A stretch of 37,858 nucleotides of DNA, taken from the IMG/VR virus record IMGVR_UViG_3300005340_000058, positions 1-37,858 of that record. One strand, written 5' to 3'. Positions 1,639-11,920 of the stretch are shown one piece after another; the first letter of the stretch is position 1, and each line of letters begins with the position of its first letter. The notes under the pieces are model-generated. The model ran no database searches and was not told where the DNA came from. It saw nothing but the letters and a program-made list of their open reading frames with translations. Source of the stretch: a virus. The position numbers were made by a program, and so were the translations under genes.

Positions 1639-3669
1639 ATGACAATCGACATGGCGCATTTCGAAACGCAATTCCAGTCCAACCAATTGCATCCCGATAT
1701 GGATGACGTCTTGTTCGAAAAGGTCTGTAATCTGCGAGATCGTATCGCTGATCTCACGGAGACAGTTGAATATCTGAAGTCATTTCTCAATCATGACGAT
1801 GATGAATTGGCTGATCTCCAGCGAATGCGTGACAGTCTGAATCAGGTCCTGGATGAGATTCGCAGGCGCACCGCTCGAATTAATGATGGTCAGCGAATCA
1901 TTAAGAACGAGATTCGCCCTATCAGCAATCAGCTCGAAGCGTCTCAGCGTGAATGGGTCCGCCTCATGGCGGAAATCGAAGCTCAGAAGCGTGAGCGTAA
2001 TAACCGCCTCCAGCTTGAAATGCTGACTGCCCGTGCACCCTGGCGCAGTCGAGCATTGAAGCATCAATGGGAGGGTGCAGTACGCCTCACATCTGCTAAG
2101 CGTGCAATTCTCGGCGATTCTCCCGGCCTGGGCAAGACACTGCAATCCATCATGACAGTGGATATGCTGAAGGCTAAGGATGAGGCGCGAAAGATTCTCA
2201 TCTTCTGCCCCAAGCCTGTGCTGGATGGATTTCAGAGGGATTTCGCTAAGTTCTCTCCTGAACAATTCGTCTTCGTTTTGGATCAGGCGGGCAAGGGCGC
2301 AAAATCTAATGTTCTCGATCTGGTCAAGGTTGCGCCTGAGGTAACGGTCCTCACCAATTACGAGGTGTGGCGCAAGGACAAGACAATCATCGATCAGCTG
2401 ATTCACTGCCAATTCGATACCATCATTCTCGATGAGGCACATAATCTCAAGGACAGTCGATCGAGTACCGCAAAAGGCATCAAGCGAATCGTTCAGGCTG
2501 AAAATAAGTGCATGCATTGCGATGCACTCACTTTCGGTTCCACATGCCCCAAATGTGGCGACCAGCCGACAAAGCTTTTCGGTAATCGCTCAGTGAAGAA
2601 TGTGTTCCCGATGACGGGCACGCCAATTCTGAATCGCCCTCAGGATCTTTTTACCATGCTTAACCTGTTGGATTCTGAAGCCTTCCCGACGGAGAATAAG
2701 TTCCTTCAGGACTTTTGCATTCGAAAGTGTGCCGGATGCCACAGGTCTTACAATTGCCTGTGTGAAACTTCTCGCTGGCGCTGGACTTTCGATTCTGGCG
2801 GTGAGGCTCGCTTGCTCAGCCGATTGGGTATGCGATTCACGGCGCGGAATCGTGACAGTGCTGGTGTGGTCATGCCCCCCCAGGAAGTCAAGCATCATTA
2901 CTTTGAACTTGACCCTGAATTGTACCCGAAGCAGACCAAGCTAATTGAAGAGCTGAGGGACAAGGCTCGAATTCAGCTCTCGGAAAGTAAGTCTGTTACT
3001 GAACTCCTTGTCGTGGCCTGGTACACGCGAATGCGTCAGTCGGCTATTTGGCCTGATGCAATCAAGATCAAGGAATTCAACGACGAAGGTGAATACGTTC
3101 GAACCTGGCAGCCTGAAATTGGTGAGTCCATCCTCATGGATGAGGGCGAGAAGCTGATTCGGGATGCTGTCGAATCGGGTAACCGAGTCATCGTATTCTC
3201 GAAGTTCAAAGAGGCGTTGAAGGAAATGGAACGACGTCTCTTGAACGTTAATAGTGACGACGATCCGTTCTGTACTGTCGTACGATATGACAGTGATTTG
3301 AGTGACGCAGACCGATTGATTGCCCAGCATGATTTCGACCTCACGGTAACCGATCCGAAGAAGTCGAAGTTCCAAGTTATGCTGGCCCAGTATGATTCAG
3401 CCAAGGTTGGACTGAATCTTCACGGTGCGCAGGAAGTTGTCTTTCTTGACCGTGAATGGAATCCGGGCATGGAAACTCAGGCGATGGATCGTGTGCGACG
3501 CATCGGATCTGAATTCGATACCATCGTCCACATCCTCCATTGCAAGGGTACGGCCACGGACCTGATTGATGAACTCATCAAGGAGAAAGAAGCCATGCTC
3601 AATGGATTCGAATCCGAGATTGAGGAAATCAATATGCAGGAAAAGCTGAGGAAGTACCTGGGGGAATAG
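1639..3669 (+). CDS. SNF2-family DEAD/DEAH-type helicase/ATPase (676 aa)
   Basis: Superfamily 2 translocase of the SNF2 class. Residues about 20-130 are a charged coiled coil. The ATPase core follows: motif I GDSPGLGKT (about 158-166), motif II DEAH (about 264), motif III region TGTPILNRPQDLF (about 325), and in the second lobe GLNLHGA, DREWNPGMETQAMDRVRRIG (motifs V-VI, about 590-620). Two Cys clusters interrupt lobe 1: CMHCDALTFGSTCPKCG (about 291-307) and CIRKCAGCHRSYNCLC (about 359-374), both probable zinc sites. ATG 1639 has AAAGG upstream. SNF2-like helicases occur in many phage replication modules and remodel protein-DNA or replication intermediates; here it heads the early genes after the C-rich leader. 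Confidence 0.9.
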   Translation: MTIDMAHFETQFQSNQLHPDMDDVLFEKVCNLRDRIADLTETVEYLKSFLNHDDDELADLQRMRDSLNQVLDEIRRRTARINDGQRIIKNEIRPISNQLEASQREWVRLMAEIEAQKRERNNRLQLEMLTARAPWRSRALKHQWEGAVRLTSAKRAILGDSPGLGKTLQSIMTVDMLKAKDEARKILIFCPKPVLDGFQRDFAKFSPEQFVFVLDQAGKGAKSNVLDLVKVAPEVTVLTNYEVWRKDKTIIDQLIHCQFDTIILDEAHNLKDSRSSTAKGIKRIVQAENKCMHCDALTFGSTCPKCGDQPTKLFGNRSVKNVFPMTGTPILNRPQDLFTMLNLLDSEAFPTENKFLQDFCIRKCAGCHRSYNCLCETSRWRWTFDSGGEARLLSRLGMRFTARNRDSAGVVMPPQEVKHHYFELDPELYPKQTKLIEELRDKARIQLSESKSVTELLVVAWYTRMRQSAIWPDAIKIKEFNDEGEYVRTWQPEIGESILMDEGEKLIRDAVESGNRVIVFSKFKEALKEMERRLLNVNSDDDPFCTVVRYDSDLSDADRLIAQHDFDLTVTDPKKSKFQVMLAQYDSAKVGLNLHGAQEVVFLDREWNPGMETQAMDRVRRIGSEFDTIVHILHCKGTATDLIDELIKEKEAMLNGFESEIEEINMQEKLRKYLGE

Positions 3670-3670
3670 G

Positions 3671-3937
3671 ATGCAAATTCGGGTAGAGGAAACACCCCTG
3701 CCAGGGGTTTGGAAGCTCAGTTTCAATCGAGCCCACGTACCTGAATGCATACCTTACCCTGACCGGGAAATGTGGGGATACAATGAAAAGCTTGACGACC
3801 TATTCATCTATCCCTACAACTTCAAAAGGATGGGCCCTTGGAAAGCTGAATTGACGGAGAGCACTAATAAGAGCCGACCTCATAAGCACATCTGGGCATG
3901 GATTACCGTACCGGAGGGATTCAATGTCGAATCATGA
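3671..3937 (+). CDS. Hypothetical protein (88 aa)
   Basis: ATG 3671 begins one base after the helicase stop, with GGGGG 3659-3663 as ribosome site, so the gene is almost certainly co-translated with the helicase. The protein is rich in Trp, Tyr and Pro (GVWKL, MWGYNEKLDDLFIYPYNF, GPWKAEL, HIWAWITVPEG), suggesting a compact beta fold, perhaps a binding module. No catalytic motif or known family was recognised. Confidence 0.65.
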   Translation: MQIRVEETPLPGVWKLSFNRAHVPECIPYPDREMWGYNEKLDDLFIYPYNFKRMGPWKAELTESTNKSRPHKHIWAWITVPEGFNVES

Positions 3938-4001
3938 ACGAGATGACCGCTATCAGTCATACCGACCGAAGCTTTTCGACCACTCAAGGACCCTAAAGTA
4001 A
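3924..4001 (+). CDS. Mini-protein (25 aa)
   Basis: ATG 3924 lies 5 nt after GGAGGG (3913-3918), one of the better ribosome sites in this arm, and overlaps the previous gene by 14 nt. The peptide is MSNHERDDRYQSYRPKLFDH plus five residues: polar, with no membrane segment. The good ribosome site is the main support; a leader-peptide role for the folded region that follows is possible but speculative. Confidence 0.4.
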   Translation: MSNHERDDRYQSYRPKLFDHSRTLK

Positions 4002-4015
4002 AAACTTGGTAAAGT

Positions 4016-4253
4016 GGATAGGATAAATCCCTTATGTCCTATCCATCTTGCCGGTCCATACCGCTATACTGGCATTGCTGCAAGAGGGGTTAGCACCCCA
4101 AATGCAGTTGCAATCCCCGCAATCCCCCGGTCGACTTGCTTTCGACCGGGGGAGAGGGGGTAGAGGCCAGAAGCGGTAATTCCTTAGCCTGCAATTCCGA
4201 TCGCCACCTTCGGAAGGCTGACGGAATTGCCGCTTTCTCTTTTAGGTGGCCAA
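4016..4253 (+). promoter_or_regulatory. Long folded leader with ribosome-site-masking helix (riboswitch-like)
   Basis: No gene fits here; instead there are successive inverted repeats. GGATAGGA 4016-4023 pairs with TCCTATCC 4037-4044. TCTTGC 4046-4051 pairs with GCAAGA 4080-4085. GGGGT 4086-4090 pairs with ACCCC 4095-4099. CCCCCGGTCGA 4124-4134 pairs with TCGACCGGGGG 4142-4152 (11 bp, 7-nt loop). Then come competing partners: AAGCGGTAATTCC 4171-4183 or GCAATTCCG 4191-4199 can each pair with 4222-4235. GCCACCT 4203-4209 is exactly complementary to AGGTGGC 4244-4250, which contains the ribosome site of the 4254 gene. This layout resembles a translational switch. The helices are seen; any ligand or protein partner is unknown. 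Confidence 0.5.
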
Positions 4254-4460
4254 ATGCTTCAGCTTCTATCATGGGGATCGGAAAGACTAGTGGGATCACA
4301 GGACCCGGATTACGATGTGGTTCCGATGCTGGGATCTGAACTTCTGGAATTGACTTGCGTCGACTGTGCCAAATTGGTCGAAACCAATTTGACAGAAGAT
4401 GACGTTGAATACTACAAGGCAATTCATGACAAGTGGCACAATGAAGGGATGCAGCCGTGA
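4254..4460 (+). CDS. Small C2H2-type zinc-binding protein candidate (68 aa)
   Basis: ATG 4254 follows AGGTGG (4244-4249). The C-terminal half has TCVDCAKLVE, then after 22 residues IHDKWHNEG, i.e. C-x2-C ... H-x3-H, the spacing of a small zinc finger. The next gene has a similar C ... C ... H-x3-H layout, so the two look like a tandem pair. The ribosome site can be masked by upstream pairing (see the 4016-4253 leader), so expression may be controlled at translation. DNA, RNA or protein binding are all possible; no specific family recognised. Confidence 0.65.
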   Translation: MLQLLSWGSERLVGSQDPDYDVVPMLGSELLELTCVDCAKLVETNLTEDDVEYYKAIHDKWHNEGMQP

Positions 4461-4931: not shown

Positions 4932-5534
4932 ATGAAATGTGTTTCATGCCTTCAGGGTTTCAAATGGGAATGTCGAGACAAGGGTGAATGCAATGAATCC
5001 AGCTTGGTGGTTGGTGGGATCGTTGATGATCCTGGCTTGGCCATTGGGAGCTTGCTGGGGAATCTTGAAGGAGATGTCGGAAATCCAGCTCAAGATTCTC
5101 TACGAGATTCGGGACACGAATCGGACCCTGACCCAGACAAATTTGTCACCTACAAAGACGACTCCTCCCTTCGGGACCAGCAATCCACAGGACGAAAACG
5201 AGCAGCGAAACTCTTCCCTCTAGATTCGGAAGCTAGCTGCGAGTGGAAAATGCAGAAGAATTGTGGTGGCGGGCAATTCCCTATCGTGGGATGCCTGAAC
5301 GGTTTTCAGCAAGCCCGCCATCACGGCCCCGACAAGAACACTCTTAACAATGAGAAGGGTAACGTCCACCGAATTTGTCACACGTGCCACAATCGATGGC
5401 ACACCCTGAATGACCCTGATTATGTGTGGGGGGGATTGCACAATGCGCATGACCCTTGTGAATGCACTATTGTCGATGTTGGCAACAATGAAGTTTTCTG
5501 GTCCGGCCGTAAGGTCGTGAAAGCGAAGGATTAG
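4932..5534 (+). CDS. HNH-like zinc protein with long N-terminal linker (200 aa)
   Basis: The C-terminal half (residues about 103-160) carries C103, C111, C121, ARHHGPDKNTLNN, then HRICHTCHNRWH (C149, C152, H157). This matches a family of HNH-like phage proteins in which a paired-histidine segment is followed by a zinc knuckle; many are nicking or packaging-related nucleases, but activity here is inferred. The N terminus has CVSCLQGFKWECRDKGEC, a second Cys cluster. Residues about 21-97 are low-complexity and are encoded across a separate membrane-protein gene in another frame (4993-5223). ATG 4932 has no strong ribosome site; an internal ATG at 5250 would drop the linker but also C103. The 603-nt frame is uninterrupted, which supports the long form. 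Confidence 0.6.
   Translation: MKCVSCLQGFKWECRDKGECNESSLVVGGIVDDPGLAIGSLLGNLEGDVGNPAQDSLRDSGHESDPDPDKFVTYKDDSSLRDQQSTGRKRAAKLFPLDSEASCEWKMQKNCGGGQFPIVGCLNGFQQARHHGPDKNTLNNEKGNVHRICHTCHNRWHTLNDPDYVWGGLHNAHDPCECTIVDVGNNEVFWSGRKVVKAKD
4993..5223 (+). CDS. Nested membrane-anchored protein (76 aa), overprinted
   Basis: ATG 4993 follows AGGGTG (4981-4986). The product opens with a clear membrane segment (NPAWWLVGSLMILAWPLGAC plus WGIL), continues with an amphipathic helix (KEMSEIQLKILYEIRDTNRT) and ends in a polar Pro/Thr/Asn-rich tail. This arrangement is typical of small phage membrane proteins. It lies wholly inside the 4932-5534 reading frame but in a different frame. Its composition looks more protein-like than the overlapping segment of the long frame, so it may be the ancestral gene here. 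Function unknown. Confidence 0.6.
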   Translation: MNPAWWLVGSLMILAWPLGACWGILKEMSEIQLKILYEIRDTNRTLTQTNLSPTKTTPPFGTSNPQDENEQRNSSL

Positions 5535-11533: not shown

Positions 11534-11920
11534 TTATCCAGCCTGTTCAAAAATGTACTCATCTACATCAGGGGCGTCATTTTCTCCATACAATGCAGAG
11601 TATCGGCCATCGTCAGCTTTGAACGCACGCATTTCGTTACGCTCACCTTGACTGAAAAGCCTATCCCTACTCCCTTTGTTGGTGCCCCCCCAAATGCCCC
11701 AAGCATTATGGAGAAGGGCGAATTCTTTGCAGATGTTTCGCACAATACACCCCCCACAGAAATCTTCGGCAGTCTTCCCCTCAAACCCTTCGGCTTCTTT
11801 GAAATTGTTATTGAGTCGCTCATCGGGGAAGAAAATATACGAAGGAACGCCATTACAAGCGGCGCTTCTCTGCCACAAGAATTGCTCAATGTCTGCGCTC
11901 ATGGCTTGATTGTCAACCAT
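11534..11920 (-). CDS. WhiB-family Fe-S transcription regulator (128 aa)
   Basis: The cysteines C22, C55, C58 and C64 (AACNG ... CGGCIVRNIC) and the GIWGG turn (75-79) are the hallmarks of WhiB proteins, [4Fe-4S] regulators restricted to Actinobacteria and their phages. FFPDE after C22 also fits. It lacks the very basic C-terminal AT-hook tail seen in some members, ending instead acidic (DDGRY...DEYIFEQAG). In mycobacteriophage TM4 a WhiB homologue represses host whiB2 and causes superinfection exclusion; a similar role here is inference. An in-frame ATG at 11902 is an alternative start. It is the last gene of the late arm. Confidence 0.9.
   Translation of the reverse strand: MVDNQAMSADIEQFLWQRSAACNGVPSYIFFPDERLNNNFKEAEGFEGKTAEDFCGGCIVRNICKEFALLHNAWGIWGGTNKGSRDRLFSQGERNEMRAFKADDGRYSALYGENDAPDVDEYIFEQAG

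What the first reader, a model, noticed from the sequence alone, without database searches (positions are those of the whole stretch)
4016..4253. Riboswitch-like leader with alternative helices and ribosome-site masking
Two upstream segments (4171-4183 and 4191-4199) compete for the same partner (4222-4235), and GCCACCT 4203-4209 is exactly complementary to AGGTGGC 4244-4250, which holds the ribosome site of the 4254 gene. Earlier hairpins (4016-4044, 4046-4085, 4086-4099, 4124-4152) could form a sensing domain. Competing helices plus a masked ribosome site are the usual layout of a translational switch. The controlled genes are two tandem small zinc-binding proteins, so a metal, a phage protein or a host metabolite are possible signals (speculation).
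Basis: partly seen in the sequence, partly recalled or inferred. Interest (0 to 1): 0.68.

Follow-up and report, generated by a model that had tools for sequence, protein, structure and literature searches.

The report
Conserved structured RNA in soil phages
The stretch in front of this phage gene is a folded RNA element that related phages keep by compensating mutations; it looks like a small RNA gene whose tip can stick to the start of the next gene, rather than a metabolite-sensing switch.

Summary
The leader is real and far more structured than chance (z -8.7). It is not an isolated riboswitch layout. It is a divergent member of a conserved phage RNA, found at the same place (helicase gene, RNA, small genes, HNH-like gene) in seven other IMG/VR phages. 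The RNA has three hairpins: H1 (4077-4108), H2 (4113-4161) and H3 (4170-4236), then a U-run (4234-4243). It is preceded by a conserved GCTATACT box and ends like an intrinsic terminator. In the seven relatives, 17 of 28 H3 pairs and 10 of 17 H2 pairs show changes on both sides. Models built without the window recover it as their best hit in 37.9 kb. In 6 of 7 relatives the same loop also matches an upstream hairpin loop, which the window lacks. The competing helix is not supported. Best reading: a phage small-RNA gene or attenuating leader acting by loop base-pairing on flanking genes. Function is untested.

The parts
4065..4070 (+). Conserved -10-like box TATACT (context GCTATACT), taken as the RNA's promoter; predicted start about 4077
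   Evidence: TATACT in 7 of 8 and TACACT in 1 of 8 family members, directly before H1. Against: consensus promoter scan finds none here and the window's -35 region is poor
4077..4108 (+). Hairpin H1 (GCTGCA/TGCAGT, inner GGGGT/ACCCC)
   Evidence: MFE fold; R2 model of relatives matches window 4065-4162, 26.3 bits, E 8e-6
4113..4161 (+). Hairpin H2 (ATCCCC/GGGGGT and TCCCCCGGTCGA/TCGACCGGGGGA)
   Evidence: MFE fold; in relatives 10 of 17 pairs change on both sides
4170..4236 (+). Hairpin H3, long terminator-like stem
   Evidence: MFE fold; R1 model of relatives (17 of 28 pairs with change on both sides) matches window 4158-4246, 17.6 bits, E 0.003
4201..4209 (+). H3 apical loop CGCCACCT region, equivalent of the invariant GGCCAC loop of relatives
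   Evidence: GGCCAC in 7 of 7 relatives; unpaired probability 0.86 to 1.0 here
4234..4243 (+). U-run TTTCTCTTTT after H3, terminator-like (shares 3 bases with the H3 stem)
   Evidence: 8 of 10 T here; 5 to 8 of 9 T in all 7 relatives
4244..4250 (+). AGGTGGC, ribosome site of the 4254 gene, exact complement of the H3 loop
   Evidence: recurring complement in 5 of 8; duplex energy -13.4 kcal/mol
4254..4460 (+). Small CxxC...HxxxH protein gene directly downstream
   Evidence: weak resemblance to a gene downstream in L178, L006 and L177
4016..4044 (+). Inverted repeat GGATAGGA...TCCTATCC upstream of the RNA; possible operator or terminator of the upstream gene, not part of the conserved unit
   Evidence: I2; lies before the TATACT box
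4932..5534 (+). HNH-like protein gene that marks the downstream side of the locus in relatives
   Evidence: 51 to 62% identity in the six relatives aligned and 56% in L190's record (L246); no Pfam or PHROG match
1639..3669 (+). SNF2-type helicase gene that marks the upstream side of the locus
   Evidence: Pfam PF00176 4e-26; PHROG 62

Best explanation
The element is a conserved phage RNA, transcribed from a promoter at about 4065-4070. It folds into three successive hairpins (H1, H2, H3) and ends at a terminator-like U-run at about 4243, giving an RNA of about 167 nt. Its active part is the H3 apical loop. By a short GC-rich duplex the loop captures a complementary site on a flanking phage message. 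In this phage that site is the ribosome site of the 4254 gene, reached in cis when polymerase reads through the terminator and possibly in trans from separately terminated copies. In relatives it is the start of the next gene and/or a hairpin loop just after the upstream gene. The result would be a double lock, termination plus a blocked ribosome site, on the small genes downstream. Shown: structure, covariation, conserved locus, conserved loop, complementarity. Inferred: promoter, termination, binding, direction of the effect.
For: Fold z -8.7 and -8.3. Covariation well above shuffles and slid controls in H3 (17 of 28 pairs, 0 of 500 shuffles) and H2 (10 of 17); RNAalifold finds H3 and H2 unaided. 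Out-of-sample recognition of the window by both models, in the right order and on the right strand, as top hits. One copy in the expected orientation in 7 of 50 records searched, the 7 used to build the model. -10-like box directly before H1 in 8 of 8 and U-rich tail in 8 of 8. Loop GGCCAC invariant in 7 of 7. Complement at the next start in 5 of 8, against 7 of 325 starts: binomial 2.5e-7 if independent, 5e-4 if only three events are counted. Upstream hairpin with loop GUGGCC or GUGGUC 115 to 117 nt before the box in 6 of 7 relatives; a random 8-nt loop would match in 0.3%.
Against: 3 of 8 (L176, L178, L180) have no downstream complement. The window lacks the upstream hairpin. Swapping loops between genomes gives equal pairing (412 of 720 permutations), so there is no genome-specific covariation for the loop contacts. 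The window's promoter and terminator are not picked by the consensus scan. The -35 conservation in relatives could instead reflect RNA pairing. The default-filter search missed the window's H3, and the next R1 hit is only 2.4 bits lower. A scan of gene starts found no recurrent trans target. No expression data.
Confidence: 0.55

Rival explanations
1. A cis-acting leader (attenuator) only: the structure belongs to the mRNA of the downstream small genes, and an unknown signal sets read-through at H3 and ribosome-site access.
For: A ribosome site follows the U-run closely in the family members; loop complement in 5 of 8; the CCU-containing linker before H3 can pair with the AGG after the U-run in several relatives (seen in the folds).
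Against: The first downstream gene differs among relatives. H3 is too stable for an obvious antiterminator. No known aptamer family at gathering threshold.
Confidence: 0.3
2. A free-standing structured RNA that acts through a protein or by self-assembly (RNA polymerase, ribosome, or kissing-loop multimers as in ornate phage RNAs), with the loop complementarities secondary.
For: Invariant CAAG opposite NACUC internal loop and invariant GGCCAC loop even where no downstream complement exists. Complementary loops GUGGCC and GGCCAC in 6 of 7. The analogous RNA of other relatives carries GGCGCC or a close variant in its loop.
Against: Much smaller than ROOL or GOLLD, no Rfam match, and no direct evidence of a partner.
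Confidence: 0.25
3. A put-like antitermination RNA: the nascent hairpins modify RNA polymerase so that it reads through downstream terminators into the replication genes.
For: Promoter-like box directly followed by hairpins at the head of the HNH, exonuclease, ATPase and primase cluster.
Against: Ends in a terminator-like hairpin itself; single copy per genome; no sequence test against put RNA was made beyond Rfam.
Confidence: 0.1
4. Chance folding of a GC-rich spacer plus an ordinary terminator.
For: Hairpin-rich spacers occur elsewhere in these phages.
Against: Covariation and out-of-sample recognition.
Confidence: 0.03

Closest known systems
Phage-encoded small regulatory RNAs in general (review PMC12197685; only its search listing and abstract start were seen)
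   Same: Short intergenic phage RNA with promoter-like start and terminator-like end, possible base-pairing to mRNA starts
   Different: No sequence or structural family shared; hosts and targets unknown here
GOLLD, ROOL and OLE ornate RNAs (PMC12286853, abstract start and passages read)
   Same: GOLLD and ROOL are phage or prophage RNAs of unknown function; structures known from covariation; kissing loops
   Different: Several times longer (ROOL and GOLLD), multi-pseudoknot, often near tRNA islands; no Rfam match here and no tRNA in the window
Translational riboswitches and autoregulatory leaders (recalled)
   Same: Ribosome site can be masked by upstream RNA
   Different: No conserved switching helix, no known aptamer, variable downstream gene, own terminator-like end
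Rfam P15 (RF00627), Pseudomonas sRNA
   Same: Weak model match to 4003-4152, 27.9 bits, E 0.0009
   Different: Far below its gathering score of 70; the match spans sequence upstream of the conserved unit; probably driven by strong hairpins

Membership tests
Metabolite riboswitch | Match to a known aptamer family | tested here: not met
   No Rfam match at gathering score in the window or nine relative loci except tRNAs; only weak non-riboswitch matches at relaxed threshold
Metabolite riboswitch | Two mutually exclusive conserved helices | tested here: not met
   Alternative helix 8.1 kcal/mol worse, probability 4e-6; not seen in the folds of relatives
Metabolite riboswitch | Ligand-dependent change | not testable with these tools
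   Needs probing or a reporter
Ribosome-site-masking RNA | Complementarity to the ribosome site, kept in relatives | tested here: inconclusive
   5 of 8 have it, 3 of 8 do not
Independent small-RNA gene | Own promoter at the 5' end | tested here: inconclusive
   -10-like box before H1 in 8 of 8, but no consensus promoter in the window
Independent small-RNA gene | Rho-independent terminator at the 3' end | tested here: inconclusive
   Stable stem then U-rich tail in 8 of 8; simple scan does not call it (loop limit of 8)
Independent small-RNA gene | Detected transcript of that size | not testable with these tools
   No RNA data
ROOL/GOLLD/OLE ornate RNAs | Match to the family model | tested here: not met
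   No Rfam match
Conserved structured RNA | Compensatory base changes above controls | tested here: met

The most novel reading that the evidence does not exclude
A ligand-free RNA toggle. One invariant hairpin loop (GGCCAC) chooses between two complementary partners that flank it: a hairpin loop (GUGGCC) at the 3' end of the upstream gene's message, and the ribosome site or start codon (GUGGCY) of the next gene. Transcripts that read through from upstream would carry the first partner and free the ribosome site; transcripts from the internal promoter lack it and stay locked. Promoter choice would thereby be converted into translation control. The window would be a version that has lost the upstream partner.
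Probability: 0.12. Interest if true: 0.8.

Novelty: new variant of a known kind. Interest (0 to 1): 0.56.

Why it matters
It adds an uncatalogued, covariation-supported RNA family to a little-studied group of phages with actinobacterial-phage relatives. It gives a concrete, two-mutation test of how a single conserved RNA loop could control neighbouring phage genes. Further relatives carry a different structured RNA with its own terminator at the same locus, which suggests that this site is a recurrent home for phage regulatory RNAs.

Tried and rejected
Protein-based searches with the 68-aa gene and the single helicase found no relatives; alignments of helicase and terminase did. The 4254 protein has no convincing relative in the phage collection (best E 0.04). 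DNA search of the leader in phages gave one 30-base chance hit.

Considered and rejected: IscB-type guide RNA (the HNH-like protein is 200 aa, about 690 bases away, and has no Pfam or PHROG match; the comparison is recalled), known Rfam families, group introns (Rfam only), and Pseudomonas P15 (sub-threshold). A genome-wide scan of gene starts carrying GTGGC[CT] in eight family-A records gave 25 of 1290 starts, and in four records of the other kind 3 of 426, with no recurrent gene. That scan used a crude start caller and missed the window's own 4254 start and the start after the RNA in L006.

Pattern scans: of 7 stretches, 5 were known records, 1 was a new member (L190) and 1 (L186) was not matched by the model. 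Of 9 stretches for the upstream hairpin, 4 were known and 5 were not matched by either model. 2 stretches in genome contigs were not matched. 3 stretches for the other RNA kind were all in records already held. The H1/H2 model found nothing in 18 further records. I tested loop-loop covariation by swapping and it failed. A fold scan of 54 loci timed out and was rerun on 18 of them: 8 of 18 had a window with z at or below -5 upstream of the HNH-like gene, against 2 of 18 downstream.

Full report
OBSERVATION. The region between the small gene ending at 3937 and ATG 4254 is noncoding by gene layout and folds far better than shuffles: -129.2 kcal/mol, z -8.72 for 3990-4270, and -91.8 kcal/mol, z -8.3 for 4077-4243. 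Two points fail. The competing helix (4191-4199 with 4222-4230) costs 8.1 kcal/mol and has probability about 4e-6. Hairpin 4016-4044 lies upstream of what turns out to be the conserved unit.

WHERE IT LIES. The record is an IMG/VR virus contig. Its helicase and terminase are related to those of Arthrobacter, Cellulosimicrobium and Microbacterium phages, and it has a WhiB-like gene, so an actinobacterial host is likely (inference). No Rfam family matches at gathering score.

RELATIVES. Helicase and terminase alignments brought in relatives. In seven records the interval between helicase and HNH-like gene holds a similar RNA: L006, L008, L176, L177, L178, L180 and, through a pattern scan, L190 (its HNH-like gene is in L246). 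They share a GCTATACT-type box, a first hairpin that starts 5 to 11 nt or so after it, GUUGCUUCCC-type linkers, a second hairpin, and a third long hairpin. The third hairpin has an internal loop CAAG opposite NACUC and an apical loop GGCCAC (CAAG, ACUCC and GGCCAC invariant in 7 of 7), and it ends in a U-rich tail (5 to 8 of 9 T in all seven, 8 of 10 in the window).

COVARIATION. On the seven relatives without the window, H3 has 17 of 28 pairs with changes on both sides, 87.8% of cells paired, and 0 of 500 shuffles as good on any measure; slid structures fall to 28 to 50% paired. H2 has 10 of 17 pairs with changes on both sides; 0 of 500 shuffles reach it on four of five measures and 7 of 500 on the number of pair types. 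RNAalifold predicts these helices unaided. The alignments are plain MAFFT; one row (L177) is one column off in part of H3.

THE WINDOW BELONGS TO IT, BUT IS DIVERGENT. A model of H1-H2 built without the window finds 4065-4162 on the + strand as best hit in the whole window, 26.3 bits, E 8e-6, next best 11.2 bits. A model of H3 built without the window finds 4158-4246 as best hit, 17.6 bits, E 0.003, next best 15.2 bits; with default filters it found nothing. The two hits adjoin in the right order. E-values are rough by the tool's own statement.

PROMOTER AND TERMINATOR. The box is TATACT in 7 of 8 and TACACT in 1 of 8. In six relatives a TTnC-like hexamer lies 16 nt upstream; the window and L176 do not show it. 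The consensus scan calls no promoter or + strand terminator here. The upstream hexamer in relatives may also be conserved as RNA pairing (GAGUGAU with GGGGUU). I therefore hold the promoter as likely, not shown.

THE LOOP AND ITS PARTNERS. Within 25 nt after the U-run, GTGGC[CT], the complement of the loop, occurs in 5 of 8 (window, L177, L008, L006, L190), at the ribosome site or start codon of the next gene, and not in L176, L178, L180. Background is 7 of 325 gene starts with a ribosome site, about 2% per 40 nt. If independent, the chance is 2.5e-7; counting only three independent events, 5e-4. In 6 of 7 relatives a hairpin just after the upstream gene, 115 to 117 nt before the box, presents GUGGCC (GUGGUC in L006), complementary to the H3 loop. 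Swapping loops between genomes does not reduce pairing (412 of 720 permutations), so there is no covariation proof of contact. In the window the upstream hairpin is not recognisable; the only exact 7-nt partner near the RNA is the ribosome site of the 4254 gene, with the loop unpaired in the fold and a duplex energy of -13.4 kcal/mol.

MECHANISM. Best supported: a short structured RNA whose H3 loop acts by base-pairing on flanking messages, combined with termination at H3. In the window this would keep the small CxxC...HxxxH genes shut unless polymerase reads through and the loop is released. Shown: structure, conservation, locus, complementarity. Inferred: transcription unit, binding, effect. 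Rivals are a pure cis leader, a protein-binding or self-assembling RNA, and an antitermination RNA.

DISTRIBUTION. With the H3 model, 7 of 50 records matched, exactly the seven used to build it, each once in sense. The H1/H2 model found nothing in 18 further records. A genome contigs pattern scan gave 2 hits that the model does not support. The family as seen here is therefore small: eight phages.

A SECOND RNA AT THE SAME PLACE. Four more distant relatives (L009, L051, L181, L182) carry a different structured RNA between the same genes. It has a -10-like box, GGCGCC or a close variant in an apical loop, a GGTCT...AGCCAAGA frame and then a separate intrinsic terminator.

LITERATURE. Searches for phage structured RNAs, actinobacteriophage small RNAs, mycobacteriophage noncoding RNA, phage-encoded small RNAs, Jasminevirus and candidate structured RNAs listed no paper that by title or abstract start describes this element. 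I read the abstract start and passages of PMC12286853 and otherwise only listings. This is not proof of absence from print.

Noticed in passing
L009:8072-8335, L051:10267-10570, L181:265-570, L182:2055-2314 (minus strand): A different structured RNA at the same locus, with GGCGCC or a close variant in an apical loop, a GGTCT...AGCCAAGA frame and a separate intrinsic terminator.
   Followed up: partly
L051:10370-10408 and L181:322-360: An identical 39-nt cap sits on hairpin stems of different sequence in two of those RNAs, which suggests a functional module; among loci held it occurs only in these two records and their overlapping pieces.
   Followed up: partly
L249:1001-1300 and L183 (G018:4900-7700): Further strongly folded stretches upstream of the HNH-like gene with a GGTCT...CTAGCC frame, possibly a third kind.
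   Followed up: no
window 4016-4044: Near-perfect inverted repeat just upstream of the -10-like box; in L178 an inverted repeat CGAGTA...TACTCG with the same 13-nt spacer lies at a similar place. Possible operator (and reading by eye).
   Followed up: no
window 11537-11920 (minus strand): WhiB-like transcription factor gene (Pfam PF02467, 4e-12).
   Followed up: no
window 4932-5534: HNH-like protein (CxxC, HHxxxxK, HRIxHxxHNRWH) highly conserved across the relatives but matching no Pfam or PHROG family.
   Followed up: partly
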